The position numbers and the translations under genes are program-made. From positions 62,001 through 126,000 of the forward strand of contig NZ_CP108002.1 in NCBI RefSeq assembly GCF_041435055.1: a stretch of 64,000 nt of DNA, in the 5' to 3' direction. The DNA is from Streptomyces sp. NBC_00341. GTDB taxonomy: Bacteria > Actinomycetota > Actinomycetes > Streptomycetales > Streptomycetaceae. Shown here one piece after another: positions 30,539-64,000 of the stretch; position 1 is the stretch's first letter; every line of letters starts with the position of its first letter. A model generated the notes under the pieces. The model saw only the letters and a list, made by a program, of their open reading frames with translations, did no database searches and had not been told where the DNA came from.

Positions 30539-30557
30539 CCAGCCCCGACCGTCCTCC

Positions 30558-47869: not shown

Positions 47870-48325
47870 TCAGTCGGTCCGGGTGCGGAGGCTTCGCGCC
47901 AGAGTGGGGATCATCACCGCCGCAGGGACGAGGTGGAGCCCGAGGAGGGCGGCGATGGTGGCAGTGTTCGCCCCGGACAGGAGGGGCGGGACCAACGAGA
48001 TCGCCGTCAGCGACACTGCCGTCCACACGAATCGCAACGCGGGGCGAGGGCTCCAACGAAGAAAAGCGACGGCAATGACGATGCCCACGACCGAGAAGAA
48101 CCCGGTCACCACGGCGAACCCGGACAACGGGATCGTCTCGCCACCGTCGGGGATCTCGAAGTTGACGCCAACGGCCTGGGCAAGCGCCGCGGCGACGGTG
48201 GTGGCCACCGTCGCTGCGAGCGTGGCGATGAAGCCGGTGCCGGCGAGCCCGCGGAGCCGGTGGGTGTGGCTGGACCGGCCCGATGCCGCGCCTGCGACGA
48301 CCCCGGTGTCATCCATGCTGTTCAT
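47870..48325 (-). CDS. DUF6069-type four-helix membrane protein
   Basis: 151 residues with four hydrophobic helices (starting GLAGTGFIATLAATVATTVA; then SGFAVVTGFFSVVGIVIAVA; VSLTAISLVPPLL; AALLGLHLVPAAVMIPTLA). The pattern with NFEIPDGGETIPLSGF between helices 1 and 2 fits DUF6069 (my assignment from memory). GGAGGAAC precedes ATG 48325. Before the IS5-type insertion it followed a small ORF by 13 bp in an operon headed by the ECF sigma gene; it is now separated from that promoter by the insertion. Confidence 0.7.
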   Translation of the reverse strand: MNSMDDTGVVAGAASGRSSHTHRLRGLAGTGFIATLAATVATTVAAALAQAVGVNFEIPDGGETIPLSGFAVVTGFFSVVGIVIAVAFLRWSPRPALRFVWTAVSLTAISLVPPLLSGANTATIAALLGLHLVPAAVMIPTLARSLRTRTD

Positions 48326-48393
48326 GGTGTTCCTCCGTCATTCGGTAACTGGCGTACGGGGTGTTGCCTTGCATGTGACGGTCCTGGCCCTAG

Positions 48394-49306
48394 AGTGTGT
48401 CTTCAAAGGTCAGATCCATAACAGGATTGAGGCGATGGTGACGGTGGCCTGGAACGACTCGTGGGTCTTGTCGTAGCGGGTGGCCAGGCCGCGCCATTGT
48501 TTGAGCCGGTTGAAGCAGCGCTCGACGACGTTGCGGAGTCGGTAGACCTCCCTGTTGAAACGCGGTGGTCGGCCGCCACGTGAGCCTCGGCGTAGGCGGC
48601 CGCTGGCCTGGTCGATGCGTTCGGGAATCGTGTGGCGGATGCCGCGCTTTCGCAGGTAGGCGCGGATCTTACGGGAGCTGTAGCCCTTGTCCGCGATGAC
48701 GTGGTCGGGCCGGGTGCGTGGCCGGCCTGGACCGATGCGGGGAACGCAGATGGCGTCCAGGACCTCCTCGAAGCGAGTGCAGTCGTTGACGTTCCCGCCG
48801 GTCAGAACGAAGGCGAGTGGGCGGCCGTGTCCGTCGCAGACCAGGTGGAGCTTGGTGCTCAGTCCGCCTCGGGATCTGCCGAGGGCGTGATCACCCGCTT
48901 CGTCCCCCTCGGTGACCCCTTTTTGCCGCCGGCGGCGTGCTGATGGGCCCGCACGATCGTGGAATCGACCGACACCAGCCAGTCGATGTCCCCGGCCGCA
49001 TCTTTCTCCGCCTGCAGAGCCCGCAGCATGCGAGAGAACGTGCCATCCAGCGCCCACCTGCGGAAACGCGTGTAGAGCGTCTGCCAGGAGCCGTAGCGTT
49101 CCGGCACATCCCGCCAGGCCGACCCCGTACGCAACTTCCACACAATCCCGTTCAGCACCACGCGGTCATCCGACCGCGGCCGCCCCGCCGTCCCCGAACT
49201 CGGCAACAACCGCGACAGGACAGCCCACTCAGCATCCGACAGCTCATGACGACGCACCACAACCGACATGATCCCTCAACACCTAAAACAGCTTTGAAGA
49301 CACGGC
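48394..49306. mobile_element. Intact IS5-family (IS427-group-like) insertion sequence
   Basis: 913 bp with imperfect terminal repeats sharing GTGTCTTCAAAG (left end AGTGTGTCTTCAAAG; right end, read inward, GCCGTGTCTTCAAAG) and a CTAG on both sides (48390-48393, 49307-49310), i.e. a CTAG/TA target duplication. The two-frame transposase is intact. Confidence 0.85.
48410..49269 (-). CDS. IS5-family transposase (two frames, -1 frameshift)
   Basis: The first frame (49269-48859) reads MSVVVRRHELSDAEWAVLSR, VLNGIVWKLRTGSAWRDVPE and DWLVSVDSTIVRAHQHAAGG (catalytic Asp). At AAAAAGGGG (48916-48924 on the plus strand) a -1 shift enters the second frame: RSRGGLSTKLHLVCDGHGRP, DHVIADKGYSSRKIRAYLRK (Asp), VYRLRNVVERCFNRLKQWRG (Glu). 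This is the standard IS5-type programmed frameshift. No other lesions are seen, so it is probably active. Confidence 0.88.
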
Positions 49307-49538
49307 CTAGGGGTGACGACGCGCACCCTCGCCGTGCGTCGGCCGGGGTTGCGCAGGGCGCGGACGCCGGTGCCGCGGAGCCAGAACCCGGCTCCGCGTC
49401 CGAGGACCTGCCCCAGCTCGCCGTCGCGCAGCTCCAGCTGAACCCGCCCGCGGGTGACGACGCCGAACGCGTCGCACCACTCCTCCGCGACCACTGGCAC
49501 ACGCGCGCCACCGCGCAGCGCGAGCGTCCACACCGGGA

Positions 49539-50537
49539 CTACTCCGTGCCGTCCGCCGGCAGGCGCTCCGGCAGCCCCAGCCGCGGGAACCGGTCGTCGT
49601 GGAACGTGACGATCTCGGTGATCACCCCGCCGGTGATCCGCAGGACATCGATCGTCAGCGGCAGGTACGCGCCCTCCTGCTTCTGCCAGAGGTAGAAGGC
49701 GACGGCGGGCTGCCGGTTCACGGAGGTGGGGACGGCGCGCAGGCCCGTCATGCCCTCGAAGCCGTCCTCGACCCAGTCGTTCACCACCGCGTCTCGGCCG
49801 ATGTATAGGCCCGGCGTGGGCGGCATCGAGCACCGGACGTCGTCCCGCAGTATGGCCGCGATCTTGCCGACGTCGGTCGCGACGCTGGCTTCGGTGAAGC
49901 GGCGCACCAACTCGCGCGTCCCGGTGTCCTGTTCGCCGCCGGTCCAGTCCTGCCGCTCGGCGGGCAGATGCTCCCGCATGCCGGCACGGGCCCGCTGCAG
50001 TGCGCTGTTCACGGAGTTGACGGAGTCCCCGAGGAGCTCCGCGACCTCCTTCGCCGGCCAGCCGAGCACGTCCCGCAGGATCAGCACGGCCCGTGGGCGC
50101 GGCGCGAGGTGCTGGACGGCGACCAGGTACGCCAGCTCGATTGTCTCCCGCGCGACGGCGAGGGTCTCCGGCTCGTCCGCGTCGCCCGCGGGCAGCTCAT
50201 CGAGGAGCCGGTCCGGGTAGGGCTGCAGCCACAGCACTTCGCCACCGGTCGCAGGCTCCGGGCGGTGCTTGGCGAGCAGGTCCAGGCAGGCGTTGGTGGC
50301 AATCCGGTACAGCCAGGCCCGGAACGTCGACCGCCCCTCGAAGGTCTCCCGCCGCCGCCAGGCACGGAGGAACGTTTCCTGCACGGTGTCCTCGGCGTCC
50401 TCGAACGACCCGAGCATCCGGTAGCAGTGCACGTGCAGCTCCCGCCGGTGCCGCTCCGCCAGCCCAGAGAACGCCGGCTCGCCGACCTCGCCCAGCCCGC
50501 TCAAGCCCAGCTCTTCCAGCCGCGTGTCCGCACTCAT
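49539..50537 (-). CDS. ECF sigma factor with C-terminal SnoaL-like domain (left copy)
   Basis: 332 residues. Region 2: FSGLAERHRRELHVHCYRML, GSFEDAEDTVQETFLRAWRR, FRAWLYRIATNACLDLLAKH. Region 4: LAPRPRAVLILRDVLGWPAK, EVAELLGDSVNSVNSALQRA. A SnoaL-like/NTF2-fold extension of about 130 residues follows (TRELVRRFTEASVATDVGKI, YIGRDAVVNDWVEDGFEGMT). This is the SigJ/ECF41/ECF56-like architecture, in which the fused domain modulates activity instead of a separate anti-sigma factor. ATG 50537 follows GGAAGGGTGAC. The identical mirror copy is at 62995-63993. Confidence 0.93.
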   Translation of the reverse strand: MSADTRLEELGLSGLGEVGEPAFSGLAERHRRELHVHCYRMLGSFEDAEDTVQETFLRAWRRRETFEGRSTFRAWLYRIATNACLDLLAKHRPEPATGGEVLWLQPYPDRLLDELPAGDADEPETLAVARETIELAYLVAVQHLAPRPRAVLILRDVLGWPAKEVAELLGDSVNSVNSALQRARAGMREHLPAERQDWTGGEQDTGTRELVRRFTEASVATDVGKIAAILRDDVRCSMPPTPGLYIGRDAVVNDWVEDGFEGMTGLRAVPTSVNRQPAVAFYLWQKQEGAYLPLTIDVLRITGGVITEIVTFHDDRFPRLGLPERLPADGTE

Positions 50538-51241
50538 CACGTCACCCTTCCGCCTCGTCGTGTCCCGTCGTAGGTATGACGGGTGCGGACGCGAAAACTC
50601 ATCACCAGGGTCGGTCGGCATGACCGATCCAGTCACCGATCCACTGATGGATTCGGTGACGGAGCACGACGCGCGTTACGACAAGGGGGGCGGGTCCGCC
50701 GGAGCGGGCGCGGGTGCGCGATCGCCTGGCGCGTGCCGGGGTCGCCTGGTCTACGACGACGCGGCGGGCATGGCCGCACGGGCACGGCACGAGGTCCACC
50801 GAAAAGAGACGGGCTTGGTCGTGGAGCCGAGACCCGGCTCACCTGGGGAGATGCGCCCAAGGGGATTCGACCTACCCACGGCGGGGATGACGGTAGCGCA
50901 AGAGCCATCGCACGTGCGCCAGCAGTACCGCCTCCGGCGCACCCAGCGTGCTCACCCCGTACGACTAGGTTCACTGTCAAAGAGGCCGAAACGACTGAGT
51001 TCGCTGTCAAACGCCTCGATTGGATGACAAAGGACATTTGGTGTCCTTCGACAGTGAAGTTAGTCGTGTGCGGCGTGCTGGTCTGCGGCGACTGAGTTGG
51101 ACGTCAATGCGCGCCCGCCACACAGCACCTTCGCGACCGCGAGCGCGTTCGCAAGGGGTACGGCCGCAAAGCCGTCTCTTACGTGCTGCTGCCCGGGCAG
51201 CGCAGGACGCTGCCGGGGCCGGCCCTGGTGCTCCGTGAGGA
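50538..51241. other. 700-bp intergenic region between sigma and hydrolase genes (left)
   Basis: Holds the sigma promoter side and, at 50961-51107, a 20-bp motif array. A plus frame from ATG 50620 (TDPVTDPLMDSVTEHDARYD) is open but shows no family and becomes low-complexity. No further gene is supported. Confidence 0.5.
50961..51107. repeat. 20-bp motif array B (left)
   Basis: Copies of CGACTnnSTTnnnTGTCAAA: 50962-50981 (CGACTAGGTTCACTGTCAAA), 50992-51011 (CGACTGAGTTCGCTGTCAAA; 30 bp start to start), a shortened CGATTGGATGACAAA at 51017-51031, an inverted copy at 51047-51066, and CGACTGAGTTGGACGTCAAT at 51089-51108. No coding potential. Confidence 0.75.
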
Positions 51242-53467
51242 CTACGGTGTCGGGCGGTGCGGCACGATCGGGAGTTGCACGTAGCTGATGCGGTCCGGAC
51301 CGGTGTGCACGGTGTTGGTTGCGCCTGCGTGGTAGGCGGCGTCGTACTCGTGGGGGACACCGTGGGCGACTCCGTCGTAGGGCTGGATGTCGATGCGCAG
51401 GCGCTGGCCGGTCCGGATCAGTCCGGTGTTGGGGATGAGTTCGATTTCGACCGGGACCACCTCGCCGTCGCGAAGGGGTGCGTGGTCGTCTTTGAGGTGG
51501 GTGTGCTTGGGCGTGTATGGGGTGGTGCGGGCGGTGTCGAGCGTGCGGTGTGACGCCTTGAGCCATCCCTTGGTCATCGGGGCGATGCGGGCGGGGTAGT
51601 TCATGGTGGTGATGCCGAGGAAGTCGACTTCTCGGTCCTGTTCGTCGATGACGCGCACGGAGATGTAGATGTCCATGTCCTCGCTCGTGGAGGACACCCA
51701 GAGTTTGGCTTTGCCGTATCCGGCGATGACCGCGTCGTCGGCCATGGGCTCGCTGATGAAGGACATGCCGGTGGTACGGGGGTCTGCCGGCTCGACGTCG
51801 GCCGAGTAGGCTGCCTCCCGCTCAGCCGTTGGCTCCGAGGACGAGAGCCGCCTGAAGTCCGAGCGCGCGGAGTCTGCCGCCCAGTCCGACTCAGCCGCGT
51901 CGAAGTACCACTTGGTGTAGTTCGTCCTGGCGATCGGCCATTCGTTCTCCTCCTGGATGTAGGAGGCGCCGTTCCCGGTGCGGATCTCCAGGCGCACCGG
52001 CGGGGTGTCCATGATTCCGTTGTCGATGCCCTTGAGCCAGTGGTCGAAGAACGCCTTGTGCCGGGTGACGGTGTCTGCCGCGTAGGACTTCTGGAACCAG
52101 TCCTCCCAGAAGTCGAGCTTCTTGTGCGGGGTCGGTGTGGCGAGGTATGCCTCGCTGCTGCCGAGCTGGTGGAAGTGGGCGAGGTGGGTGGTGGCTGCTA
52201 CGGACCACAGGGGAACGGTGACCTCGCTCATGTCCGGGCTCATGAACATCTCCGCGCGCGGCCCGTAGATGAGGTCGGGGTCGGAGTCCTTGAAGGGGCT
52301 CTCCTTCATGATGCGGGTGAAGTCGGCGATGTCGGGTTCGCCGCAGATCGCGGGCACGAACCCGGCCTGCTTCCAGTTGGGGAAGAAGTGCTCGTTGTAG
52401 ATGCCGCCGTTGTAGGCGACCTCCTCGTACAGGTCGACGTCGGTGCCAATCGCGATCATCGCCTTGAGGTGTGCGGGCTGCAGGCTCGCGGCGGCGTGCT
52501 GACTGACGGCGAGATAGGACATGCCCCACAAGCCGACGGCCCCGTTCGACCAGGGCTGGACGCCGGCCCACTCGATGGCGTCGCGGAACGCTTCGGCTCC
52601 GGCCAGTCCCCACGGGGCCAGTTGACCGGGGCTCCGGCCTGCACCGGGCATGTCGACGCGGACGACCGCGTACCTGTCGGGTACCCACGTGGCCGTGTTG
52701 ACGGTCTCGTGGTTCTCGAACTGCTGGCCCTCCGCGTTGCCGAGGAAGTAGTCCTCTTCCATCTGCTCGTGCCGCTCCAGGTCGGCGTCACTGCAGACGG
52801 AGTGGTGGTGGAAGGCTTTTCCGTACGGGCCGCAGCTCACGATGACCGGGTGGTTTCCGGGCTCTGCCGGGCGGAAGACGTCGGCGAAGACGTGCGAGCC
52901 GTTCTGCAGAGGGATCTTGACGTCGCGGAAGCGGAGGATGCCCATCGCGTTGCGGCGCAGTTCGTTCCGCGCGTTCGCGGGAGTGCACAACTGGCGCGGC
53001 GTCGCGTCGGTGAAGACGCCGGCCCGGTCGAGGTCGGCGAGAAGCCCGGTGACGACGGGGTCCTCGGTGAATCCCTGGATCTTGTCGGCCTGGTGGACGC
53101 CGGCGAAGTTGGCGTCGTGGCGGAAGTCGATGGGCCGGTCGCCGATGATGTCGTGGGCCTCGGGTGCGATGTCGGTCCCGTTGTCGCGGATGCCGTTGCG
53201 GCCGAGGGAGAACACCAGGCGGGCGATGTTCGTGACGCCCGGGTCCTTCAGCTTGCTGAGGTCGCCGTCGACGCGGGCGACTATCTGTGCGAGATGCAGC
53301 CGGGGCGCTGCGGGGACGTTGCCGATCGCGGTGCCGCCGAGAAGGAACGCGACTCGCTCGCCTTCCTCGTAGTGGAACTCGCCGCGTTCGTTGGTGAGTC
53401 CGCGACGGGTGGGGGTCTCGTACTTCAGGCCGGCGATCGGCCCGGCCATGACGCCTGTGAGAGTCAT
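51242..53467 (-). CDS. CocE/NonD-family hydrolase with an extra N-terminal beta domain (left copy)
   Basis: 741 residues from ATG 53467 (AAGGAAGA upstream). Residues 1-~125 form a domain of the adhesin-type GLKYETPTRRGLTNERGEFH, YEEGERVAFLLGGTAIGNV pattern. Residues ~190-560 are the X-Pro dipeptidyl-peptidase/CocE alpha-beta hydrolase with nucleophile Ser317 in GLWGMSYLAVSQ and the late helix FFDHWLKGIDNG. Residues ~560-741 are the jelly-roll C-terminal domain (AKLWVSSTSEDMDIYISVRV, TGQRLRIDIQPYD). No signal peptide. It cleaves an ester or amide of unknown identity. It is in an operon with the second hydrolase. Mirror copy at 60065-62290. Confidence 0.9.
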   Translation of the reverse strand: MTLTGVMAGPIAGLKYETPTRRGLTNERGEFHYEEGERVAFLLGGTAIGNVPAAPRLHLAQIVARVDGDLSKLKDPGVTNIARLVFSLGRNGIRDNGTDIAPEAHDIIGDRPIDFRHDANFAGVHQADKIQGFTEDPVVTGLLADLDRAGVFTDATPRQLCTPANARNELRRNAMGILRFRDVKIPLQNGSHVFADVFRPAEPGNHPVIVSCGPYGKAFHHHSVCSDADLERHEQMEEDYFLGNAEGQQFENHETVNTATWVPDRYAVVRVDMPGAGRSPGQLAPWGLAGAEAFRDAIEWAGVQPWSNGAVGLWGMSYLAVSQHAAASLQPAHLKAMIAIGTDVDLYEEVAYNGGIYNEHFFPNWKQAGFVPAICGEPDIADFTRIMKESPFKDSDPDLIYGPRAEMFMSPDMSEVTVPLWSVAATTHLAHFHQLGSSEAYLATPTPHKKLDFWEDWFQKSYAADTVTRHKAFFDHWLKGIDNGIMDTPPVRLEIRTGNGASYIQEENEWPIARTNYTKWYFDAAESDWAADSARSDFRRLSSSEPTAEREAAYSADVEPADPRTTGMSFISEPMADDAVIAGYGKAKLWVSSTSEDMDIYISVRVIDEQDREVDFLGITTMNYPARIAPMTKGWLKASHRTLDTARTTPYTPKHTHLKDDHAPLRDGEVVPVEIELIPNTGLIRTGQRLRIDIQPYDGVAHGVPHEYDAAYHAGATNTVHTGPDRISYVQLPIVPHRPTP

Positions 53468-53623
53468 CGTTTTCTGTCTTCCTTGCCTTGAGTCATCGGT
53501 GGCCGCAAATGCGAAGCCGGTCGCGCAGAGCGCGCCGGAGGGCAGAGGCTGCACGCGGGCGTTCGCGATGGGATGGGAAACCGCCGGTCCGGCCGGCAGT
53601 GCCGCGACCGGAACGGCGGACTG

Positions 53624-55363
53624 TCATGCGGTCTTGAGCGGGAGCTGCAGGTAGGAGGTGCGGGCCCCGCCGGTGTGCACGAGGTGGATTCCCGTGTTCT
53701 GCGGCTCGTGGAACGGGACGCCGGGCATGATCGCGCCGAGCAGGTTATGTGCGCTGATCACCAGGCGCAGCTGCTCGCCGGGGTGGAGCACCAGACCGAC
53801 GGGGGAGAGATCGATCTGGATCTCCGCTACGTCGCCGACTGCGAGCTTCTCGACCCGGTCGAAGGTGTGCGCGGGGATCTCGTCGGTGCTGAGGTCGCCG
53901 TCGAGGTGGCGGGTGGACACGCGCAGGCGCCCGTTGGAGCCCTTGTAGCGCAGCACCGAGGCGCTCCGATCGGTGACGTCCTGCAGGAAGGCGCTCCGGT
54001 GGGGGACGGTGAACTGCTGCAGCGCTGTCCCGTTGGCGTCGAGCTTCTGCACAAGGACGAACAGGTCCATGTCGTCCGTGCCCTCTGCCTCCACCCACAG
54101 GTGGGCTTTGGGGTAACCGACGAGTTCCGTTTCCTCGTCGAACCCGGCGAGGAAGGAGACACAGCCCGGGAGTGCCTGGGCCGGGTACCGCACGCTGCCC
54201 GCGGAGCCCGGGGCTTCCCTCCGCAGCGTGCGTGAGGAGGCGTCCAGGTAGAACCTCGTGTTCTCCACACCGGCGGGCGGGAAGGTGTCTGCGGGCTGTT
54301 CGACCCGGTCGGTGCCATGGAGGTCGAGCGTGGCGTAGCGCACCCGGGGAGTCTCCTCCCACCCGTTGTCCTCGCCCTTGAGGTAGTGGTCGAAGAACCG
54401 GCACAGGTCCTCACGGTGCGCCTCGTCGTAGTAGTCCGGCCACTCCTGGGTGCTGTGAATGCGCAGCCACTTCTCCTGCGAGGCGATGCGCCGCCAGGCC
54501 CGGAAGGTGCCTTGCGTGTGCAGGGTGTTGGTGTAGCTCGCGACGACGTACGCCGGGACGGTGATCCTGTCGAAGCGGGGGACCTTCTCCTCCCACACCG
54601 CGTCGAAGAGAGGGCGCTGCTCGGCTTCGGCGGCGACGTCTTCTCGGCGGCCGGCGCCGGCGAAGTTGCGCTGCAGTTGCTTCGTGAATCCGAGGTCGGG
54701 CATGCCGCCGCGCAGGACGAGATCCCGGTAGACGTCGCTGATTCCTTCCCACGGGTTGATCGCGGCGAGGTGCGGCGGCTGCTCCGCCGCGGTGAACCAC
54801 TGCGACACCGCGAGGTAGGACGTGCCGCTCATGCCGACCTTGCCGTTGCACCACTCCTGGTCGGCGAGCCACTCGATGAGGTCGTGGCAGTCACGGCCCT
54901 CCTGCCGGTCCCACAGGTAGCTGTCACCACCGGAGTTCGCGATACCGCGGGGGTCGGGATTGCAGATCGCATACCCGTTCGCGCACCAGAACGCGGGGTC
55001 CGGTCCCTCGAACTTGCCCAGACCGGACAAGGCGCTGTTGTCCACGCCGATCATGTCGAAGAGCGAGGTAGTGGTGGGGGCTGTGCCCCCGCTCTTGCCG
55101 TACGGGCTCCACGCCACGATGACGGGTACCCGCTCGCTGCCCGCCGGGCGGAAGACGTCGGTGTAGATCGTGACGCCGTCGCGCAGGGTCACGGCGACGT
55201 CCTTCTCGAACACGATCTCGGCCGACAGCGGCAGGAATTCCGGCGCGACCTGAAACCGGGCGGGCAGAGTGCGGATGCCGGGCTCGAAGGGACTCAGCAC
55301 GCCCCGGGCAGGCCCGGTCTCATAGGGGTACGACGGCACGAAGACCTTCTCGTCATCGCTCAC
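53624..55363 (-). CDS. CocE/NonD-family hydrolase (left copy)
   Basis: 579 residues from GTG 55363 (AGGAG 7 bp upstream; an in-frame ATG at 55399 is less likely). N-terminal CocE part: DVAVTLRDGVTIYTDVFRPA, VPVIVAWSPYGKSGG, PRGIANSGGDSYLWDRQEGR, nucleophile Ser182 in MSGTSYLAVSQ, helix CRFFDHYLKGEDNGWEETPR. The C-terminal jelly-roll includes PKAHLWVEAEGTDDMDLFVL and HPGEQLRLVISAHN. It is the first gene of the operon, divergent from a TetR regulator. The family includes cocaine esterase and glutaryl-7-ACA acylases. Mirror copy at 58169-59908. Confidence 0.92.
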   Translation of the reverse strand: MSDDEKVFVPSYPYETGPARGVLSPFEPGIRTLPARFQVAPEFLPLSAEIVFEKDVAVTLRDGVTIYTDVFRPAGSERVPVIVAWSPYGKSGGTAPTTTSLFDMIGVDNSALSGLGKFEGPDPAFWCANGYAICNPDPRGIANSGGDSYLWDRQEGRDCHDLIEWLADQEWCNGKVGMSGTSYLAVSQWFTAAEQPPHLAAINPWEGISDVYRDLVLRGGMPDLGFTKQLQRNFAGAGRREDVAAEAEQRPLFDAVWEEKVPRFDRITVPAYVVASYTNTLHTQGTFRAWRRIASQEKWLRIHSTQEWPDYYDEAHREDLCRFFDHYLKGEDNGWEETPRVRYATLDLHGTDRVEQPADTFPPAGVENTRFYLDASSRTLRREAPGSAGSVRYPAQALPGCVSFLAGFDEETELVGYPKAHLWVEAEGTDDMDLFVLVQKLDANGTALQQFTVPHRSAFLQDVTDRSASVLRYKGSNGRLRVSTRHLDGDLSTDEIPAHTFDRVEKLAVGDVAEIQIDLSPVGLVLHPGEQLRLVISAHNLLGAIMPGVPFHEPQNTGIHLVHTGGARTSYLQLPLKTA

Positions 55364-55455
55364 GACGGGGCTCCTCTCACCGACACGTAGTCGGCTCACT
55401 TCAGACGGCCGGGTCGGATGATCCGCCGCTGGCGAGCGTAGAGCTGCGATCCAAT

Positions 55456-55477
55456 TATATCAACTAGCGTTGATATA
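55456..55477. promoter_or_regulatory. TetR operator between hydrolase operon and regulator (left copy)
   Basis: TATATCAAC (55456-55464), spacer TAGC, GTTGATATA (55469-55477): 9-bp perfect arms in a strikingly A/T-rich island, 26 bp before the TetR ATG. Confidence 0.78.
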
Positions 55478-55502
55478 TGACGGAGGCCGCTAGAGTGATC
55501 AC

Positions 55503-56141
55503 ATGTCCGAAAAACCCACAGCGTCGGCGCCCCGGCCACCACGCGGACGCCGGCCGGGGCAGAACACCACCCGGCAGGCGGTCCTCGACGCCGCGCGAGC
55601 CCGCTTCGCCGCAGACGGCTTCAACGCCACGACCATCCGCAAGATCGCTGCGGACGCCGGCGTCGACGCCGCGCTGGTGATGCGGTACTTCCGGTCCAAG
55701 GACGAACTCTTCGCCGCGGTGATGTCCATCTCGCCCGACGCCCTTGCCCGCCTCGCCGGCGCATTCGAGGGCCCCGAGCACTCGCTGGGCGAACGGGTCG
55801 CCCGGGCCCACCTGGGTGTGTGGGAGAGCGAGCCCAAGGATGCGGATGCTCTGCTCGCGATGCTCCGCGGAGCGATCGCGAACGAGCAGGCGACCGCGCA
55901 ACTCCGGGAATTCATCGAGTCGCGCCTGACGGAGGACGTCCACCGGCGCGTGCCCGGTGACGATCACGACACCGCGGTCCGGGTGGCTCTGGCCGCGTCC
56001 ATGCTGATCGGCATCCTCGTCGGACGCCGGGTGGTACAGGTGCCCCTGCTCACCGGCGAAGACGCGGAGTCAATCGTCCAGCGGGTTGGGCCCGCGCTGC
56101 AGGAACTTCTCGTGCCGCGGCCCGCACCGGACTCAGCCTGA
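55503..56141 (+). CDS. TetR family regulator of the hydrolase operon (left copy)
   Basis: 212 residues. HTH: TRQAVLDAARARFAADGFNA, TTIRKIAADAGVDAALVMRY, FRSKDELFAAVM. The C-terminal TetR_C_17-like helical domain ends VQRVGPALQELLVPRPAPDS. It is divergent from the two-hydrolase operon over a 22-bp operator, so it probably represses both directions until a substrate or product binds. Mirror copy at 57391-58029. Confidence 0.93.
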   Translation: MSEKPTASAPRPPRGRRPGQNTTRQAVLDAARARFAADGFNATTIRKIAADAGVDAALVMRYFRSKDELFAAVMSISPDALARLAGAFEGPEHSLGERVARAHLGVWESEPKDADALLAMLRGAIANEQATAQLREFIESRLTEDVHRRVPGDDHDTAVRVALAASMLIGILVGRRVVQVPLLTGEDAESIVQRVGPALQELLVPRPAPDSA

Positions 56142-56280
56142 AATCAAGCCCGGTGCAACCTCCAGCCCGCCCGCCGACAAAGCGTGGTGCGAGGTGCCGA
56201 AAATCAAGGTGCCCCTGGGCGGTCGTGACCGCTTCGCCGACTCCGGCCGCGAACATCAGCGCCTCATTGGTCAACCCGCA

Positions 56281-56350
56281 CGACTCGGTTGCCTGTCAAA
56301 GAAGCTGATACGACTGGGTTCGATGTCAAACGCCTCGATTGAATGTCAGA
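56281..56350. repeat. 20-bp motif array C (left)
   Basis: CGACTCGGTTGCCTGTCAAA (56281-56300), CGACTGGGTTCGATGTCAAA (56311-56330; again 30 bp apart), and a shortened CGATTGAATGTCAGA (56336-56350). Its right flank (GAGGAAATTTGGGTG) resembles that of array B. The DNA from 56142 to here contains no supported gene. Confidence 0.75.
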
Positions 56351-56462
56351 GGAAATTTGGGTGTGGGGTTTGGTTTTGGTGCAGGTGGTGCCGATTGCCA
56401 ATTGCTACACAATGATCCATGTTGATGCACGTCGACTTTGGGGCGTCCCGGGAGTGTGGTCC

Positions 56463-56751
56463 TGTTCCGCCAAAGGAACATGCTGCATCAGTTGATGCAG
56501 AGGGGTGGCAGGGATGGGGGAGACTGGTTCCAGAGTTCATCCGGACCACGAAGTGACGCGCCCTCACACCAGGCCTGGTACACCCCACGGCCCCGTGCTG
56601 GGCCCTGCTCGCCGCCAGGGCCACCAGGCAGGGCCCAGCGCACTCTCGCCACCTGCAGGCCGCAGGAGTGGTGGCCCCGCATCCCAGTCTCCACAAAGGC
56701 CAGGACGATGATGCGCCGTCACCCTTCCCGTAGCCAGCCCGGCGGAGCCGG
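56463..56751. repeat. Telomere-like hairpin cluster (left arm)
   Basis: At least seven inverted repeats in 290 bp: TGTTCC/GGAACA (56463-56480), CTGCATCA-gt-TGATGCAG (56483-56500), ACCAGGCCTGGT (56568-56579), CACGG-cc-CCGTG (56586-56597), 12-bp arms GCTGGGCCCTGC/GCAGGGCCCAGC (56597-56608, 56628-56639), CCTGC-aggcc-GCAGG (56652-56666) and CCGGC-gga-GCCGG (56739-56751). Such crowding of short-loop hairpins is typical of Streptomyces replicon ends. The sequence does not match the canonical CCCGCGGAGCGGG-type end I know. Confidence 0.65.
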
Positions 56752-56780
56752 TAGGGCGGCCGCTGGCAGCGGACGCCCTA
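56752..56780. repeat. Central hairpin of the giant palindrome
   Basis: TAGGGCG (56752-56758) pairs with CGCCCTA (56774-56780) and CCGCT (56760-56764) with AGCGG (56768-56772), around a 3-nt loop GGC (56765-56767). In between, G56759 opposes A56773, a single G.A mismatch. The loop and mismatch are the only arm asymmetry found. Confidence 0.85.
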
Positions 56781-57069
56781 CCGGCTCCGCCGGGCTGGCT
56801 ACGGGAAGGGTGACGGCGCATCATCGTCCTGGCCTTTGTGGAGACTGGGATGCGGGGCCACCACTCCTGCGGCCTGCAGGTGGCGAGAGTGCGCTGGGCC
56901 CTGCCTGGTGGCCCTGGCGGCGAGCAGGGCCCAGCACGGGGCCGTGGGGTGTACCAGGCCTGGTGTGAGGGCGCGTCACTTCGTGGTCCGGATGAACTCT
57001 GGAACCAGTCTCCCCCATCCCTGCCACCCCTCTGCATCAACTGATGCAGCATGTTCCTTTGGCGGAACA
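56781..57069. repeat. Telomere-like hairpin cluster (right arm)
   Basis: Exact mirror of 56463-56751 with the same seven hairpins in reverse order. Confidence 0.65.
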
Positions 57070-57181
57070 GGACCACACTCCCGGGACGCCCCAAAGTCGA
57101 CGTGCATCAACATGGATCATTGTGTAGCAATTGGCAATCGGCACCACCTGCACCAAAACCAAACCCCACACCCAAATTTCC

Positions 57182-57251
57182 TCTGACATTCAATCGAGGC
57201 GTTTGACATCGAACCCAGTCGTATCAGCTTCTTTGACAGGCAACCGAGTCG
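57182..57251. repeat. 20-bp motif array C (right, mirrored)
   Basis: Reverse complement of 56281-56350; copies at 57232-57251 and 57202-57221 plus the shortened one at 57182-57196. Confidence 0.75.
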
Positions 57252-57390
57252 TGCGGGTTGACCAATGAGGCGCTGATGTTCGCGGCCGGAGTCGGCGAAG
57301 CGGTCACGACCGCCCAGGGGCACCTTGATTTTCGGCACCTCGCACCACGCTTTGTCGGCGGGCGGGCTGGAGGTTGCACCGGGCTTGATT

Positions 57391-58029
57391 TCAGGCTGAG
57401 TCCGGTGCGGGCCGCGGCACGAGAAGTTCCTGCAGCGCGGGCCCAACCCGCTGGACGATTGACTCCGCGTCTTCGCCGGTGAGCAGGGGCACCTGTACCA
57501 CCCGGCGTCCGACGAGGATGCCGATCAGCATGGACGCGGCCAGAGCCACCCGGACCGCGGTGTCGTGATCGTCACCGGGCACGCGCCGGTGGACGTCCTC
57601 CGTCAGGCGCGACTCGATGAATTCCCGGAGTTGCGCGGTCGCCTGCTCGTTCGCGATCGCTCCGCGGAGCATCGCGAGCAGAGCATCCGCATCCTTGGGC
57701 TCGCTCTCCCACACACCCAGGTGGGCCCGGGCGACCCGTTCGCCCAGCGAGTGCTCGGGGCCCTCGAATGCGCCGGCGAGGCGGGCAAGGGCGTCGGGCG
57801 AGATGGACATCACCGCGGCGAAGAGTTCGTCCTTGGACCGGAAGTACCGCATCACCAGCGCGGCGTCGACGCCGGCGTCCGCAGCGATCTTGCGGATGGT
57901 CGTGGCGTTGAAGCCGTCTGCGGCGAAGCGGGCTCGCGCGGCGTCGAGGACCGCCTGCCGGGTGGTGTTCTGCCCCGGCCGGCGTCCGCGTGGTGGCCGG
58001 GGCGCCGACGCTGTGGGTTTTTCGGACAT
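57391..58029 (-). CDS. TetR family regulator (right copy)
   Basis: 212 residues, identical to the product of 55503-56141, in mirror orientation. It has a TetR HTH (TTIRKIAADAGVDAALVMRY) and helical ligand domain, and is divergent from the right-hand hydrolase operon. If the inverted repeat is real in the cell, the repressor and its targets are both doubled. Confidence 0.92.
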   Translation of the reverse strand: MSEKPTASAPRPPRGRRPGQNTTRQAVLDAARARFAADGFNATTIRKIAADAGVDAALVMRYFRSKDELFAAVMSISPDALARLAGAFEGPEHSLGERVARAHLGVWESEPKDADALLAMLRGAIANEQATAQLREFIESRLTEDVHRRVPGDDHDTAVRVALAASMLIGILVGRRVVQVPLLTGEDAESIVQRVGPALQELLVPRPAPDSA

Positions 58030-58054
58030 GTGATCACTCTAGCGGCCTCCGTCA

Positions 58055-58076
58055 TATATCAACGCTAGTTGATATA
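58055..58076. promoter_or_regulatory. TetR operator (right copy)
   Basis: Mirror of 55456-55477: TATATCAAC, spacer GCTA, GTTGATATA, between the TetR gene and the hydrolase operon. Confidence 0.78.
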
Positions 58077-58168
58077 ATTGGATCGCAGCTCTACGCTCGC
58101 CAGCGGCGGATCATCCGACCCGGCCGTCTGAAGTGAGCCGACTACGTGTCGGTGAGAGGAGCCCCGTC

Positions 58169-59908
58169 GTGAGCGATGACGAGAAGGTCTTCGTGCCGTC
58201 GTACCCCTATGAGACCGGGCCTGCCCGGGGCGTGCTGAGTCCCTTCGAGCCCGGCATCCGCACTCTGCCCGCCCGGTTTCAGGTCGCGCCGGAATTCCTG
58301 CCGCTGTCGGCCGAGATCGTGTTCGAGAAGGACGTCGCCGTGACCCTGCGCGACGGCGTCACGATCTACACCGACGTCTTCCGCCCGGCGGGCAGCGAGC
58401 GGGTACCCGTCATCGTGGCGTGGAGCCCGTACGGCAAGAGCGGGGGCACAGCCCCCACCACTACCTCGCTCTTCGACATGATCGGCGTGGACAACAGCGC
58501 CTTGTCCGGTCTGGGCAAGTTCGAGGGACCGGACCCCGCGTTCTGGTGCGCGAACGGGTATGCGATCTGCAATCCCGACCCCCGCGGTATCGCGAACTCC
58601 GGTGGTGACAGCTACCTGTGGGACCGGCAGGAGGGCCGTGACTGCCACGACCTCATCGAGTGGCTCGCCGACCAGGAGTGGTGCAACGGCAAGGTCGGCA
58701 TGAGCGGCACGTCCTACCTCGCGGTGTCGCAGTGGTTCACCGCGGCGGAGCAGCCGCCGCACCTCGCCGCGATCAACCCGTGGGAAGGAATCAGCGACGT
58801 CTACCGGGATCTCGTCCTGCGCGGCGGCATGCCCGACCTCGGATTCACGAAGCAACTGCAGCGCAACTTCGCCGGCGCCGGCCGCCGAGAAGACGTCGCC
58901 GCCGAAGCCGAGCAGCGCCCTCTCTTCGACGCGGTGTGGGAGGAGAAGGTCCCCCGCTTCGACAGGATCACCGTCCCGGCGTACGTCGTCGCGAGCTACA
59001 CCAACACCCTGCACACGCAAGGCACCTTCCGGGCCTGGCGGCGCATCGCCTCGCAGGAGAAGTGGCTGCGCATTCACAGCACCCAGGAGTGGCCGGACTA
59101 CTACGACGAGGCGCACCGTGAGGACCTGTGCCGGTTCTTCGACCACTACCTCAAGGGCGAGGACAACGGGTGGGAGGAGACTCCCCGGGTGCGCTACGCC
59201 ACGCTCGACCTCCATGGCACCGACCGGGTCGAACAGCCCGCAGACACCTTCCCGCCCGCCGGTGTGGAGAACACGAGGTTCTACCTGGACGCCTCCTCAC
59301 GCACGCTGCGGAGGGAAGCCCCGGGCTCCGCGGGCAGCGTGCGGTACCCGGCCCAGGCACTCCCGGGCTGTGTCTCCTTCCTCGCCGGGTTCGACGAGGA
59401 AACGGAACTCGTCGGTTACCCCAAAGCCCACCTGTGGGTGGAGGCAGAGGGCACGGACGACATGGACCTGTTCGTCCTTGTGCAGAAGCTCGACGCCAAC
59501 GGGACAGCGCTGCAGCAGTTCACCGTCCCCCACCGGAGCGCCTTCCTGCAGGACGTCACCGATCGGAGCGCCTCGGTGCTGCGCTACAAGGGCTCCAACG
59601 GGCGCCTGCGCGTGTCCACCCGCCACCTCGACGGCGACCTCAGCACCGACGAGATCCCCGCGCACACCTTCGACCGGGTCGAGAAGCTCGCAGTCGGCGA
59701 CGTAGCGGAGATCCAGATCGATCTCTCCCCCGTCGGTCTGGTGCTCCACCCCGGCGAGCAGCTGCGCCTGGTGATCAGCGCACATAACCTGCTCGGCGCG
59801 ATCATGCCCGGCGTCCCGTTCCACGAGCCGCAGAACACGGGAATCCACCTCGTGCACACCGGCGGGGCCCGCACCTCCTACCTGCAGCTCCCGCTCAAGA
59901 CCGCATGA
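58169..59908 (+). CDS. CocE/NonD-family hydrolase (right copy)
   Basis: 579 residues, identical to the product of 53624-55363. GTG 58169 has AGGAG upstream. It has the CocE alpha-beta hydrolase domain with Ser182 (GTSYLAVSQ) and a C-terminal jelly-roll. It is the first gene of the two-hydrolase operon, with 156 bp to the next gene. Confidence 0.92.
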   Translation: MSDDEKVFVPSYPYETGPARGVLSPFEPGIRTLPARFQVAPEFLPLSAEIVFEKDVAVTLRDGVTIYTDVFRPAGSERVPVIVAWSPYGKSGGTAPTTTSLFDMIGVDNSALSGLGKFEGPDPAFWCANGYAICNPDPRGIANSGGDSYLWDRQEGRDCHDLIEWLADQEWCNGKVGMSGTSYLAVSQWFTAAEQPPHLAAINPWEGISDVYRDLVLRGGMPDLGFTKQLQRNFAGAGRREDVAAEAEQRPLFDAVWEEKVPRFDRITVPAYVVASYTNTLHTQGTFRAWRRIASQEKWLRIHSTQEWPDYYDEAHREDLCRFFDHYLKGEDNGWEETPRVRYATLDLHGTDRVEQPADTFPPAGVENTRFYLDASSRTLRREAPGSAGSVRYPAQALPGCVSFLAGFDEETELVGYPKAHLWVEAEGTDDMDLFVLVQKLDANGTALQQFTVPHRSAFLQDVTDRSASVLRYKGSNGRLRVSTRHLDGDLSTDEIPAHTFDRVEKLAVGDVAEIQIDLSPVGLVLHPGEQLRLVISAHNLLGAIMPGVPFHEPQNTGIHLVHTGGARTSYLQLPLKTA

Positions 59909-60064
59909 CAGTCCGCCGTTCCGGTCGCGGCACTGCCGGCCGGACCGGCGGTTTCCCATCCCATCGCGAACGCCCGCGTGCAGCCTCTGCCCTCCGGCGC
60001 GCTCTGCGCGACCGGCTTCGCATTTGCGGCCACCGATGACTCAAGGCAAGGAAGACAGAAAACG

Positions 60065-62290
60065 ATGACTCTCACAGGCGTCATGGCCGGGCCGATCGCC
60101 GGCCTGAAGTACGAGACCCCCACCCGTCGCGGACTCACCAACGAACGCGGCGAGTTCCACTACGAGGAAGGCGAGCGAGTCGCGTTCCTTCTCGGCGGCA
60201 CCGCGATCGGCAACGTCCCCGCAGCGCCCCGGCTGCATCTCGCACAGATAGTCGCCCGCGTCGACGGCGACCTCAGCAAGCTGAAGGACCCGGGCGTCAC
60301 GAACATCGCCCGCCTGGTGTTCTCCCTCGGCCGCAACGGCATCCGCGACAACGGGACCGACATCGCACCCGAGGCCCACGACATCATCGGCGACCGGCCC
60401 ATCGACTTCCGCCACGACGCCAACTTCGCCGGCGTCCACCAGGCCGACAAGATCCAGGGATTCACCGAGGACCCCGTCGTCACCGGGCTTCTCGCCGACC
60501 TCGACCGGGCCGGCGTCTTCACCGACGCGACGCCGCGCCAGTTGTGCACTCCCGCGAACGCGCGGAACGAACTGCGCCGCAACGCGATGGGCATCCTCCG
60601 CTTCCGCGACGTCAAGATCCCTCTGCAGAACGGCTCGCACGTCTTCGCCGACGTCTTCCGCCCGGCAGAGCCCGGAAACCACCCGGTCATCGTGAGCTGC
60701 GGCCCGTACGGAAAAGCCTTCCACCACCACTCCGTCTGCAGTGACGCCGACCTGGAGCGGCACGAGCAGATGGAAGAGGACTACTTCCTCGGCAACGCGG
60801 AGGGCCAGCAGTTCGAGAACCACGAGACCGTCAACACGGCCACGTGGGTACCCGACAGGTACGCGGTCGTCCGCGTCGACATGCCCGGTGCAGGCCGGAG
60901 CCCCGGTCAACTGGCCCCGTGGGGACTGGCCGGAGCCGAAGCGTTCCGCGACGCCATCGAGTGGGCCGGCGTCCAGCCCTGGTCGAACGGGGCCGTCGGC
61001 TTGTGGGGCATGTCCTATCTCGCCGTCAGTCAGCACGCCGCCGCGAGCCTGCAGCCCGCACACCTCAAGGCGATGATCGCGATTGGCACCGACGTCGACC
61101 TGTACGAGGAGGTCGCCTACAACGGCGGCATCTACAACGAGCACTTCTTCCCCAACTGGAAGCAGGCCGGGTTCGTGCCCGCGATCTGCGGCGAACCCGA
61201 CATCGCCGACTTCACCCGCATCATGAAGGAGAGCCCCTTCAAGGACTCCGACCCCGACCTCATCTACGGGCCGCGCGCGGAGATGTTCATGAGCCCGGAC
61301 ATGAGCGAGGTCACCGTTCCCCTGTGGTCCGTAGCAGCCACCACCCACCTCGCCCACTTCCACCAGCTCGGCAGCAGCGAGGCATACCTCGCCACACCGA
61401 CCCCGCACAAGAAGCTCGACTTCTGGGAGGACTGGTTCCAGAAGTCCTACGCGGCAGACACCGTCACCCGGCACAAGGCGTTCTTCGACCACTGGCTCAA
61501 GGGCATCGACAACGGAATCATGGACACCCCGCCGGTGCGCCTGGAGATCCGCACCGGGAACGGCGCCTCCTACATCCAGGAGGAGAACGAATGGCCGATC
61601 GCCAGGACGAACTACACCAAGTGGTACTTCGACGCGGCTGAGTCGGACTGGGCGGCAGACTCCGCGCGCTCGGACTTCAGGCGGCTCTCGTCCTCGGAGC
61701 CAACGGCTGAGCGGGAGGCAGCCTACTCGGCCGACGTCGAGCCGGCAGACCCCCGTACCACCGGCATGTCCTTCATCAGCGAGCCCATGGCCGACGACGC
61801 GGTCATCGCCGGATACGGCAAAGCCAAACTCTGGGTGTCCTCCACGAGCGAGGACATGGACATCTACATCTCCGTGCGCGTCATCGACGAACAGGACCGA
61901 GAAGTCGACTTCCTCGGCATCACCACCATGAACTACCCCGCCCGCATCGCCCCGATGACCAAGGGATGGCTCAAGGCGTCACACCGCACGCTCGACACCG
62001 CCCGCACCACCCCATACACGCCCAAGCACACCCACCTCAAAGACGACCACGCACCCCTTCGCGACGGCGAGGTGGTCCCGGTCGAAATCGAACTCATCCC
62101 CAACACCGGACTGATCCGGACCGGCCAGCGCCTGCGCATCGACATCCAGCCCTACGACGGAGTCGCCCACGGTGTCCCCCACGAGTACGACGCCGCCTAC
62201 CACGCAGGCGCAACCAACACCGTGCACACCGGTCCGGACCGCATCAGCTACGTGCAACTCCCGATCGTGCCGCACCGCCCGACACCGTAG
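60065..62290 (+). CDS. CocE/NonD-family hydrolase with N-terminal beta domain (right copy)
   Basis: 741 residues, identical to the product of 51242-53467. ATG 60065 follows AAGGAAGA. N-terminal beta domain (~1-125), linker, CocE hydrolase domain with Ser317 (GMSYLAVSQ), C-terminal jelly-roll domain. An upstream in-frame start at 59978 would add 29 residues (MQPLPSGALCATGFAFAATD), mildly hydrophobic, but has no ribosome binding site. Confidence 0.9.
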   Translation: MTLTGVMAGPIAGLKYETPTRRGLTNERGEFHYEEGERVAFLLGGTAIGNVPAAPRLHLAQIVARVDGDLSKLKDPGVTNIARLVFSLGRNGIRDNGTDIAPEAHDIIGDRPIDFRHDANFAGVHQADKIQGFTEDPVVTGLLADLDRAGVFTDATPRQLCTPANARNELRRNAMGILRFRDVKIPLQNGSHVFADVFRPAEPGNHPVIVSCGPYGKAFHHHSVCSDADLERHEQMEEDYFLGNAEGQQFENHETVNTATWVPDRYAVVRVDMPGAGRSPGQLAPWGLAGAEAFRDAIEWAGVQPWSNGAVGLWGMSYLAVSQHAAASLQPAHLKAMIAIGTDVDLYEEVAYNGGIYNEHFFPNWKQAGFVPAICGEPDIADFTRIMKESPFKDSDPDLIYGPRAEMFMSPDMSEVTVPLWSVAATTHLAHFHQLGSSEAYLATPTPHKKLDFWEDWFQKSYAADTVTRHKAFFDHWLKGIDNGIMDTPPVRLEIRTGNGASYIQEENEWPIARTNYTKWYFDAAESDWAADSARSDFRRLSSSEPTAEREAAYSADVEPADPRTTGMSFISEPMADDAVIAGYGKAKLWVSSTSEDMDIYISVRVIDEQDREVDFLGITTMNYPARIAPMTKGWLKASHRTLDTARTTPYTPKHTHLKDDHAPLRDGEVVPVEIELIPNTGLIRTGQRLRIDIQPYDGVAHGVPHEYDAAYHAGATNTVHTGPDRISYVQLPIVPHRPTP

Positions 62291-62994
62291 TCCTCACGGA
62301 GCACCAGGGCCGGCCCCGGCAGCGTCCTGCGCTGCCCGGGCAGCAGCACGTAAGAGACGGCTTTGCGGCCGTACCCCTTGCGAACGCGCTCGCGGTCGCG
62401 AAGGTGCTGTGTGGCGGGCGCGCATTGACGTCCAACTCAGTCGCCGCAGACCAGCACGCCGCACACGACTAACTTCACTGTCGAAGGACACCAAATGTCC
62501 TTTGTCATCCAATCGAGGCGTTTGACAGCGAACTCAGTCGTTTCGGCCTCTTTGACAGTGAACCTAGTCGTACGGGGTGAGCACGCTGGGTGCGCCGGAG
62601 GCGGTACTGCTGGCGCACGTGCGATGGCTCTTGCGCTACCGTCATCCCCGCCGTGGGTAGGTCGAATCCCCTTGGGCGCATCTCCCCAGGTGAGCCGGGT
62701 CTCGGCTCCACGACCAAGCCCGTCTCTTTTCGGTGGACCTCGTGCCGTGCCCGTGCGGCCATGCCCGCCGCGTCGTCGTAGACCAGGCGACCCCGGCACG
62801 CGCCAGGCGATCGCGCACCCGCGCCCGCTCCGGCGGACCCGCCCCCCTTGTCGTAACGCGCGTCGTGCTCCGTCACCGAATCCATCAGTGGATCGGTGAC
62901 TGGATCGGTCATGCCGACCGACCCTGGTGATGAGTTTTCGCGTCCGCACCCGTCATACCTACGACGGGACACGACGAGGCGGAAGGGTGACGTG
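62291..62994. other. Intergenic region between hydrolase and sigma genes (right)
   Basis: Mirror of 50538-51241. Apart from the 20-bp motif array at 62425-62571 and the sigma upstream region, no gene is supported. Confidence 0.5.
62425..62571. repeat. 20-bp motif array B (right, mirrored)
   Basis: Reverse complement of 50961-51107, with four full-length copies and one shortened copy of CGACTnnSTTnnnTGTCAAA. Confidence 0.75.
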
Positions 62995-63993
62995 ATGAGT
63001 GCGGACACGCGGCTGGAAGAGCTGGGCTTGAGCGGGCTGGGCGAGGTCGGCGAGCCGGCGTTCTCTGGGCTGGCGGAGCGGCACCGGCGGGAGCTGCACG
63101 TGCACTGCTACCGGATGCTCGGGTCGTTCGAGGACGCCGAGGACACCGTGCAGGAAACGTTCCTCCGTGCCTGGCGGCGGCGGGAGACCTTCGAGGGGCG
63201 GTCGACGTTCCGGGCCTGGCTGTACCGGATTGCCACCAACGCCTGCCTGGACCTGCTCGCCAAGCACCGCCCGGAGCCTGCGACCGGTGGCGAAGTGCTG
63301 TGGCTGCAGCCCTACCCGGACCGGCTCCTCGATGAGCTGCCCGCGGGCGACGCGGACGAGCCGGAGACCCTCGCCGTCGCGCGGGAGACAATCGAGCTGG
63401 CGTACCTGGTCGCCGTCCAGCACCTCGCGCCGCGCCCACGGGCCGTGCTGATCCTGCGGGACGTGCTCGGCTGGCCGGCGAAGGAGGTCGCGGAGCTCCT
63501 CGGGGACTCCGTCAACTCCGTGAACAGCGCACTGCAGCGGGCCCGTGCCGGCATGCGGGAGCATCTGCCCGCCGAGCGGCAGGACTGGACCGGCGGCGAA
63601 CAGGACACCGGGACGCGCGAGTTGGTGCGCCGCTTCACCGAAGCCAGCGTCGCGACCGACGTCGGCAAGATCGCGGCCATACTGCGGGACGACGTCCGGT
63701 GCTCGATGCCGCCCACGCCGGGCCTATACATCGGCCGAGACGCGGTGGTGAACGACTGGGTCGAGGACGGCTTCGAGGGCATGACGGGCCTGCGCGCCGT
63801 CCCCACCTCCGTGAACCGGCAGCCCGCCGTCGCCTTCTACCTCTGGCAGAAGCAGGAGGGCGCGTACCTGCCGCTGACGATCGATGTCCTGCGGATCACC
63901 GGCGGGGTGATCACCGAGATCGTCACGTTCCACGACGACCGGTTCCCGCGGCTGGGGCTGCCGGAGCGCCTGCCGGCGGACGGCACGGAGTAG
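62995..63993 (+). CDS. ECF sigma factor with C-terminal SnoaL-like domain (right copy)
   Basis: 332 residues, identical to the product of 49539-50537, running off toward the window end. ATG 62995 follows GGAAGGGTGAC. Region 2 and region 4 of an ECF sigma factor are fused to an NTF2/SnoaL-like domain. The downstream cupin-like ORF seen on the left would start exactly at the window boundary, so whether the right copy is also interrupted by an insertion cannot be seen. Confidence 0.92.
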   Translation: MSADTRLEELGLSGLGEVGEPAFSGLAERHRRELHVHCYRMLGSFEDAEDTVQETFLRAWRRRETFEGRSTFRAWLYRIATNACLDLLAKHRPEPATGGEVLWLQPYPDRLLDELPAGDADEPETLAVARETIELAYLVAVQHLAPRPRAVLILRDVLGWPAKEVAELLGDSVNSVNSALQRARAGMREHLPAERQDWTGGEQDTGTRELVRRFTEASVATDVGKIAAILRDDVRCSMPPTPGLYIGRDAVVNDWVEDGFEGMTGLRAVPTSVNRQPAVAFYLWQKQEGAYLPLTIDVLRITGGVITEIVTFHDDRFPRLGLPERLPADGTE

Positions 63994-64000
63994 TCCCGGT

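What the first reader, a model, noticed from the sequence alone, without database searches (positions are those of the whole stretch)
49532..64000. At least 14.5-kb near-perfect palindrome: two 7.2-kb arms head-to-head
Positions x and 113532-x pair across the whole region, with identical translated products in both arms and one mismatch beside the centre. Long perfect palindromes are unstable in normal bacterial DNA. In Streptomyces they are expected where terminal inverted repeats meet: fused or circularised ends, dimeric linear plasmids, or assemblies that folded back at a telomere. The arms reach the window edge, so the true repeat is longer or ends just there. Genes in the arms are doubled only if the junction is physical.
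Basis: partly seen in the sequence, partly recalled or inferred. Interest (0 to 1): 0.95.

Follow-up and report, generated by a model that had tools for sequence, protein, structure and literature searches.

The report
Chromosome end mirrored at its telomere
The first 237 kb of this Streptomyces chromosome sequence is one near-perfect mirror image that turns at a telomere-like hairpin sequence, and its outer half is most likely a copy added during genome assembly rather than real extra DNA.

Summary
The palindrome is real in the sequence and far larger than reported: contig C1:1-237,531 is one palindrome with arms of 118,765 bp, one mismatched pair, and its centre at window 56766. The centre matches an inner palindrome of archetypal Streptomyces telomeres, which lies 179-195 nt from the contig end in six relatives. 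The outer ~185 nt was not found in this assembly. C1:1 is not a telomere: it starts inside a GH38 alpha-mannosidase gene that is whole across the other arm's boundary. The far end of C1 is a telomere of another class, shared with plasmid C2, so joined or circularised ends do not fit. Three other records or contigs hold one-sided telomere fold-backs, but at the outermost palindrome; a fourth holds joined repeats. Best reading: reads folded back at a telomere hairpin and the assembler walked into a mirror copy, so C1:1-118,766 is spurious. Not excluded: the left end folded back in the cell, perhaps because the only full-length Tap/Tpg pair found belongs to the other telomere class. Only raw reads decide.

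The parts
1..56765 (-). left arm of the palindrome (part inside the window; runs on to C1:1). Probably the spurious mirror copy
56767..64000 (+). right arm (part inside the window; runs on to C1:237,531 and then into the single-copy chromosome)
56754..56778 (.). centre: 25-nt imperfect hairpin, 5+5 bp stem, G/A mismatch, GGC loop (-12.9 kcal/mol as DNA); aligns with an inner palindrome of archetypal telomeres
56759..56759 (.). left side of the only mismatched pair (G); this side reads like the relatives' telomeres
56773..56773 (.). right side of the only mismatched pair (A)
56781..56793 (+). innermost telomere palindrome CCGGCTCCGCCGG, right arm (mirror copy 56739-56751)
57032..57088 (+). conserved subtelomeric element (TGCATCAACTGATGCA inverted repeat, then GCATGTTCCTTTGGCGGAACA); mirror copy 56444-56500
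57391..58029 (-). TetR-family regulator (PF00440, PF17920); mirror copy 55503-56141
58133..59908 (+). CocE/NonD-family hydrolase (TIGR00976, PF02129); mirror copy 53624-55399
59978..62290 (+). second CocE/NonD-family hydrolase; mirror copy 51242-53554
62896..63993 (+). ECF sigma factor (TIGR02960); mirror copy 49539-50636

Best explanation
The mirror image turns at a sequence that matches an inner hairpin palindrome of Streptomyces telomeres, and its outer arm, contig bases 1-118,766, is most likely a spurious copy made when reads that folded back at the chromosome's left end led the assembler to walk back along the opposite strand. Shown: the palindrome, the telomere match at its centre, the missing outer telomere, the arm ending inside a gene that is whole on the other side, and a telomere of another class at the far end of the contig. 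On this reading the left chromosome end lies at about C1:118,766 plus some 185 nt of telomere that is missing, the chromosome is about 8.66 Mb, and the arm's genes exist once.
For: One palindrome to contig base 1 with one mismatch in 118,765 pairs. C1:1 falls in codon 804 of a 1,010-codon GH38 alpha-mannosidase that is intact across C1:237,531|237,532 with all four GH38 domains; the left copy keeps only the last 205 codons. The far end of C1 is telomeric and matches both ends of linear plasmid C2 (75-76% over about 300 nt), so C1 is not a cut-open circle. The centre aligns with a palindrome lying 179-195 nt from the contig end in 6 of 6 relatives fetched; 4 of those 6 ends still carry terminal palindrome I. 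Precedents: NZ_CP108468.1 ends in a telomere-centred mirror of about 17 kb while its sister plasmid NZ_CP108034.1 and C2 end cleanly at the same telomere; NZ_CP070243.1 begins with a 3.9-kb mirror arm; contig G149:C11 has a mirror at each end. In vitro, a Streptomyces telomere 3' end that folded back on itself was extended (PMC4513846, passages).
Against: No reads were available. The other one-sided fold-backs turn at or next to the outermost palindrome, whereas this one turns about 190 nt further in, and no outer telomere was found in the assembly. The others differ between arms by about 0.04-1.4%; this one by one base. Arms of 118.8 kb are longer than ordinary reads, so many normal reads must have been laid on both copies. 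Five other replicon ends of the same assembly (C1 right, C2 and C3 both) show no fold-back.
Confidence: 0.83

Rival explanations
1. The left end folded back in the cell: an end that could not be patched lost its outer telomere, its 3' strand annealed at the next inner hairpin and was copied, leaving either a hairpin-closed end or a mirror-image double chromosome (intrastrand annealing as reported for Streptomyces by Qin and Cohen 2000).
For: The turn lies inside the telomere and the outer ~185 nt was not found anywhere in the assembly. The only full-length Tap match and only full-length Tpg match lie together on plasmid C2 and resemble the type I pair that goes with CTTG-loop telomeres, the class of C2 and of the right end, not of the left end (PMC7205883 section 13). 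The mirror would assemble in just this way.
Against: Fold-back artefacts in other records need no biology and look alike. A mirror double chromosome would carry two origins and partition sites. Cross-talk between Tap/Tpg pairs and telomere classes is reported as likely (PMC8743542 section 14 part 1). I did not search for GtpA/GtpB-type or unknown terminal proteins.
Confidence: 0.12
2. A linear chromosome with 118.8-kb terminal inverted repeats whose telomeres were joined, in the cell or by the assembler, and the resulting circle cut at a repeat boundary.
For: TIRs of this size are common (median 50.6 kb, up to 2.8 Mb; PMC11260486 passages). NZ_CP101398.1 shows that joined repeats occur in records: 12.3-kb arms head to head between different flanks.
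Against: C1's far end is a telomere of another class, so it does not continue into C1:1; the translation across that junction restores no gene, while the mannosidase is whole across the other boundary.
Confidence: 0.03
3. A real inverted duplication of the left 118.8 kb with a further, unassembled end beyond C1:1.
For: C1:1 is not a telomere, so something could lie beyond it.
Against: No extra flank exists in the assembly, the break falls inside a gene, and one base of divergence over 118.8 kb would need a very recent event.
Confidence: 0.02

Closest known systems
Archetypal Streptomyces telomere (ends such as L095, L097, L098, G016)
   Same: Centre and the next palindrome inward align with the two innermost palindromes; GGGCGTCCGCT read in 6 of 6 relatives and on the left-arm side here
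   Different: The outer ~185 nt with palindrome I is missing and replaced by a mirror copy; the central hairpin is more stable here (-12.9 versus -3.5 kcal/mol in L098)
Fold-back ends in public Streptomyces records: NZ_CP108468.1, NZ_CP070243.1, unnamed contig G149:C11
   Same: One-sided mirror copy centred in a telomere and running to or near the contig end; genes annotated twice
   Different: Shorter arms (about 2.6-17 kb), turn at or next to the outermost palindrome, more differences between arms
Joined terminal repeats, NZ_CP101398.1 (S. cavourensis F2 plasmid)
   Same: Telomeres head to head in the middle of a record
   Different: 12.3-kb arms with different DNA on each side; here one arm ends at contig base 1
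[quoted passage not shown] seen only as cited in PMC3315005, content recalled)
   Same: A 3' tail folds at a short inverted repeat and copies a long arm
   Different: Shown there in living cells on linear plasmids; here no reads or gels
Hairpin-ended Borrelia replicons (PMC6945570, passages)
   Same: Long-read contigs carry inverted repeats at their ends; the authors inspected contigs for these and removed verified overlaps
   Different: Closed hairpins made by a telomere resolvase; no evidence of that here

Membership tests
Archetypal Streptomyces telomere (left end of C1) | Inner palindromes of the archetypal set | tested here: met
   Alignment with six relatives' contig ends
Archetypal Streptomyces telomere (left end of C1) | Terminal palindrome I (CCCGCGGAGCGGG) and palindromes II-IV at the end of the replicon | tested here: not met
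   Outer part not found in the assembly: beyond the centre the best match to L098:1-230 has E 0.04. So what is in the contig is a telomere remnant, not a full telomere
Archetypal Streptomyces telomere (left end of C1) | A Tap/Tpg pair of the archetypal kind encoded in the genome | tested here: inconclusive
   One full-length Tap and one full-length Tpg, both on C2 and of type I resemblance; a partial Tpg-like match on C1 (model positions 16-111 of 183) was not resolved
Terminal inverted repeat (TIR) | The same sequence at both ends of the chromosome | tested here: not met
   No copy of the arm in the last 120 kb of C1; only a 1.2-kb, 80% match
Circular chromosome with fused telomeres | Contig end continues into contig start | tested here: not met
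   C1 right end is telomeric; no gene restored across end-to-start, gene intact across 237,531|237,532
Fold-back assembly artefact | Mirror copy with no unique flank, ending at the contig end | tested here: met
   Palindrome runs to C1:1, which lies inside a gene
Fold-back assembly artefact | Arm read depth of single-copy DNA and reads that stop at the true end | not testable with these tools
   No raw reads
CTTG-loop telomere with type I Tap/Tpg (C1 right end, C2) | Similar telomere sequence and type I Tap/Tpg | tested here: met
   C2 end matches NZ_CP026653.1 (77.3%) and NZ_CP041605.2 (76.8%); Tpg 76.5% and 75.4% to the same records, Tap 87.2% to NZ_CP041605.2

The most novel reading that the evidence does not exclude
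The mirror is physical: a chromosome whose left telomere lost its own Tap/Tpg pair after the right end and plasmid C2 brought in another telomere system; the unpatched left end eroded to an inner hairpin and folded back, so that the cell lives with a hairpin-sealed or mirror-image chromosome end.
Probability: 0.12. Interest if true: 0.85.

Novelty: not a real feature. Interest (0 to 1): 0.32.

Why it matters
If the fold-back reading holds, this chromosome is overstated by about 118.8 kb, its arm genes are counted twice, and its left end looks like a huge palindrome that does not exist. Three further records or contigs with one-sided telomere fold-backs show that such ends can pass into public databases, some marked complete, and can mislead counts of repeats, gene copies and telomeres. 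If instead the fold is physical, it would be a natural case of a bacterial chromosome end healed by folding back. The mismatched telomere classes make that directly testable.

Tried and rejected
Circularised chromosome with long TIRs: rejected because the C1 right end is telomeric and nothing is restored across end-to-start. A SNP between two real telomeres as the cause of the mismatch: set aside; an imperfect hairpin stem explains it and the left-arm side matches relatives better (88% against 82%). Finding a close relative with the same end intact: a search of 150 relatives with window 56753-62000 found only paralogues at about 70-73% identity or short pieces, so the missing end could not be read from a sister strain. 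Fold energy of the inner 300 nt as a whole: not unusual (z -1.03). Other internal telomere matches that were not mirrors: G257:C49, G171:C1 and G019:C2 (longest self-inverted match 47 bp in the parts fetched), NZ_CP099470.1 (31 bp) and NZ_CP109321.1 (a CA/TG run). Paper searches listed no paper that I recognised as describing fold-back artefacts at Streptomyces telomeres; the library lacks most subscription journals.
Full report
What is there. The window is bases 62,001-126,000 of contig C1 (8,775,322 bp) of a 9.06-Mb, three-contig genome. The reported pairing holds: one mismatched pair (window 56759/56773) and one odd centre base (56766). I fetched the first 260 kb and last 120 kb of C1 and all of C2 (255,797 bp) and C3 (32,033 bp). 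The same palindrome covers C1:1-237,531, 118,765 pairs with that one mismatch. It ends exactly at contig base 1. The genome is Streptomyces: two 'same genus' contigs, G287:C22 (28,139 bp) and G187:C106 (466,518 bp), have the same lengths as the S. parvus and S. albipurpureus records found by pattern, and the first 20 kb of C2 is 99.6% identical over 98% of its length to the end of a Streptomyces plasmid.

The outer arm has no end of its own. C1:1 lies inside codon 804 of a GH38 alpha-mannosidase. In the right arm that gene (C1:236,912-239,941, minus strand, 1,010 codons) runs whole across the palindrome boundary and matches all four GH38 Pfam domains; the left copy keeps 205 codons and part of one domain. 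So the boundary at 237,531 is not a junction between unlike DNA; the left copy simply stops.

The far end of C1 is a telomere. Its last ~300 bp match both ends of C2 at 75-76%, with tightly packed palindromes up to the last bases. C3 has a third kind of telomere, matched by 3 plasmid records. The left arm has no copy in the last 120 kb of C1. C1 is therefore not a cut-open circle and the arm is not a TIR.

The centre is telomeric. A search of 392 same-genus genomes with window 56753-57400 gave matches to its first 71 bases close to contig ends in G016:C28 and G187:C106 (position about 181-183 from base 1) and in G287:C22 (about 185 from the end). A pattern scan of genome contigs gave 5 stretches, in 5 of 5 of which the pattern lies roughly 200 nt from the contig end. 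Aligned, the centre corresponds to the second palindrome from the inside of archetypal telomeres, at 179-195 nt from the end in 6 of 6 relatives, 4 of which still carry palindrome I. L098's 240-nt 3' strand folds into a row of hairpins (z -8.21). Here the central 25 nt form a 5+5-bp stem with a G/A mismatch and GGC loop, -12.9 kcal/mol; the corresponding 23 nt of L098 give -3.5. The left-arm side of the centre reads GGGCGTCCGCT as in all six relatives, the right-arm side does not, and L098 matches the left side at 88% and the right at 82%. I read the mismatch as an imperfect native stem kept by a fold-back; whether the central letters are native or a consensus error I cannot tell. The outer 183 nt of L098 has no match better than E 0.04 elsewhere in the assembly.

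Precedents and base rate. With an archetypal telomere (G226) as query, 174 of 392 genomes matched. Of the 74 plus-strand rows in the (capped) listing, on 70 contigs, 65 contigs have the match within 500 bases of base 1 and 5 do not (minus-strand rows were dropped because the list gives no contig lengths). Of the five, G149:C11 carries a mirror at each end (289-8,826, 99.1%; 20,062-25,314, 99.96%), G070:C71 a 482-bp head-to-head pair at 91% between different flanks, and the other three no long mirror in the parts fetched. In PLSDB, 60 of 84 records with a C2-type telomere were listed, each with its best place near a record end; yet NZ_CP108468.1 also has the telomere inside, at the centre (about 239,360 of 256,555) of a mirror of about 17 kb, 98.6-99.7% identical depending on alignment settings, with genes annotated twice, whereas NZ_CP108034.1 and C2 end cleanly. 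Of 60 of 165 archetypal records listed, four had the best place away from the ends: NZ_CP070243.1 begins with a 3.94-kb mirror arm, NZ_CP101398.1 has 12.3-kb repeats joined head to head between different flanks, and two are not such mirrors. By eye, the one-sided fold-backs turn at or next to the outermost palindrome; ours turns about 190 nt further in. That difference counts against treating it as just another case.

How it most likely works. Streptomyces replication leaves 3' overhangs of about 300 nt with packed palindromes, and in vitro a telomere 3' end that folded on itself was extended (PMC4513846, 12 of 25 passages). The fold site here lies within that overhang length. Inferred: folded ends gave palindromic reads, and the assembler followed them into the opposite strand, laying ordinary reads on both copies, until the contig stopped inside the mannosidase gene. 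For hairpin-ended Borrelia replicons, authors inspected long-read contigs for terminal inverted repeats and removed verified overlaps (PMC6945570, passages).

The biological rival. The only full-length Tap (C2:234,036-236,135) and the only full-length Tpg (C2:236,176-236,721) sit side by side on C2; a partial Tpg-like match lies on C1. Tpg is 76.5% and 75.4% identical to those of NZ_CP026653.1 and NZ_CP041605.2, while many other plasmids in the spread listing (60 of 397) lie at 40-50%; Tap is 87.2% identical to NZ_CP041605.2. C2's telomere matches the same two records at about 77%. In PMC7205883 (passages and section 13) this is the type I pair, associated with CTTG-loop telomeres. So the right end and C2 have a matching pair, and the archetypal left end may not. 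Against this, cross-talk is thought likely and strains whose chromosome relies on plasmid-borne tap/tpg are known (PMC8743542, section 14 part 1); I searched neither GtpA/GtpB nor unknown terminal proteins. Hybrid replicons with two telomere classes are already known (same section). If an unpatched left end eroded to the inner hairpin and folded back in the cell, the assembly would look the same. I give this 0.12.

Verdict.

Noticed in passing
window 57032-57088 (mirror 56444-56500): A conserved element with a TGCATCA...TGATGCA inverted repeat just inside the telomere. In one search, 21 match rows in 19 genomes cover this part of the query, 18 of the 21 lie within about 620 nt of a contig end or beside an archetypal telomere match. 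Function not known to me.
   Followed up: partly
C1 right end, C2 both ends, C1 centre, C3 both ends: Three kinds of telomere in one genome; the chromosome seems to have an archetypal-like left end and a CTTG-loop right end, with no TIR detected in the stretches compared.
   Followed up: partly
NZ_CP108468.1:222,000-256,555 (locus L110): Plasmid record marked complete ends in a telomere-centred mirror of about 17 kb with genes annotated twice.
   Followed up: yes
NZ_CP070243.1:1-7,880 (L127); G149:C11 (L119, L120): Further telomere-centred mirror ends, one on the plasmid record and one at each end of the contig.
   Followed up: yes
NZ_CP101398.1:85,662-110,278 (L125); G070:C71:10,363-10,844 (L118): Telomeres head to head with different DNA on both sides: joined terminal repeats or real fusions.
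   Followed up: partly
window 50949-51041, 56268-56360, 57172-57264, 62491-62583: A 93-bp repeat, 84% alike, with 75-93% matches in many Streptomyces genomes; from memory it resembles an insertion-sequence end, not tested.
   Followed up: no
C1:372,456-372,740: Partial Tpg-like match (model positions 16-111 of 183, 127.9 bits) on the chromosome; intact gene or remnant not resolved.
   Followed up: partly
C2:91,000-181,000: Dense array of internal repeats at about 74-95% identity in plasmid C2, as in a large modular gene cluster.
   Followed up: no
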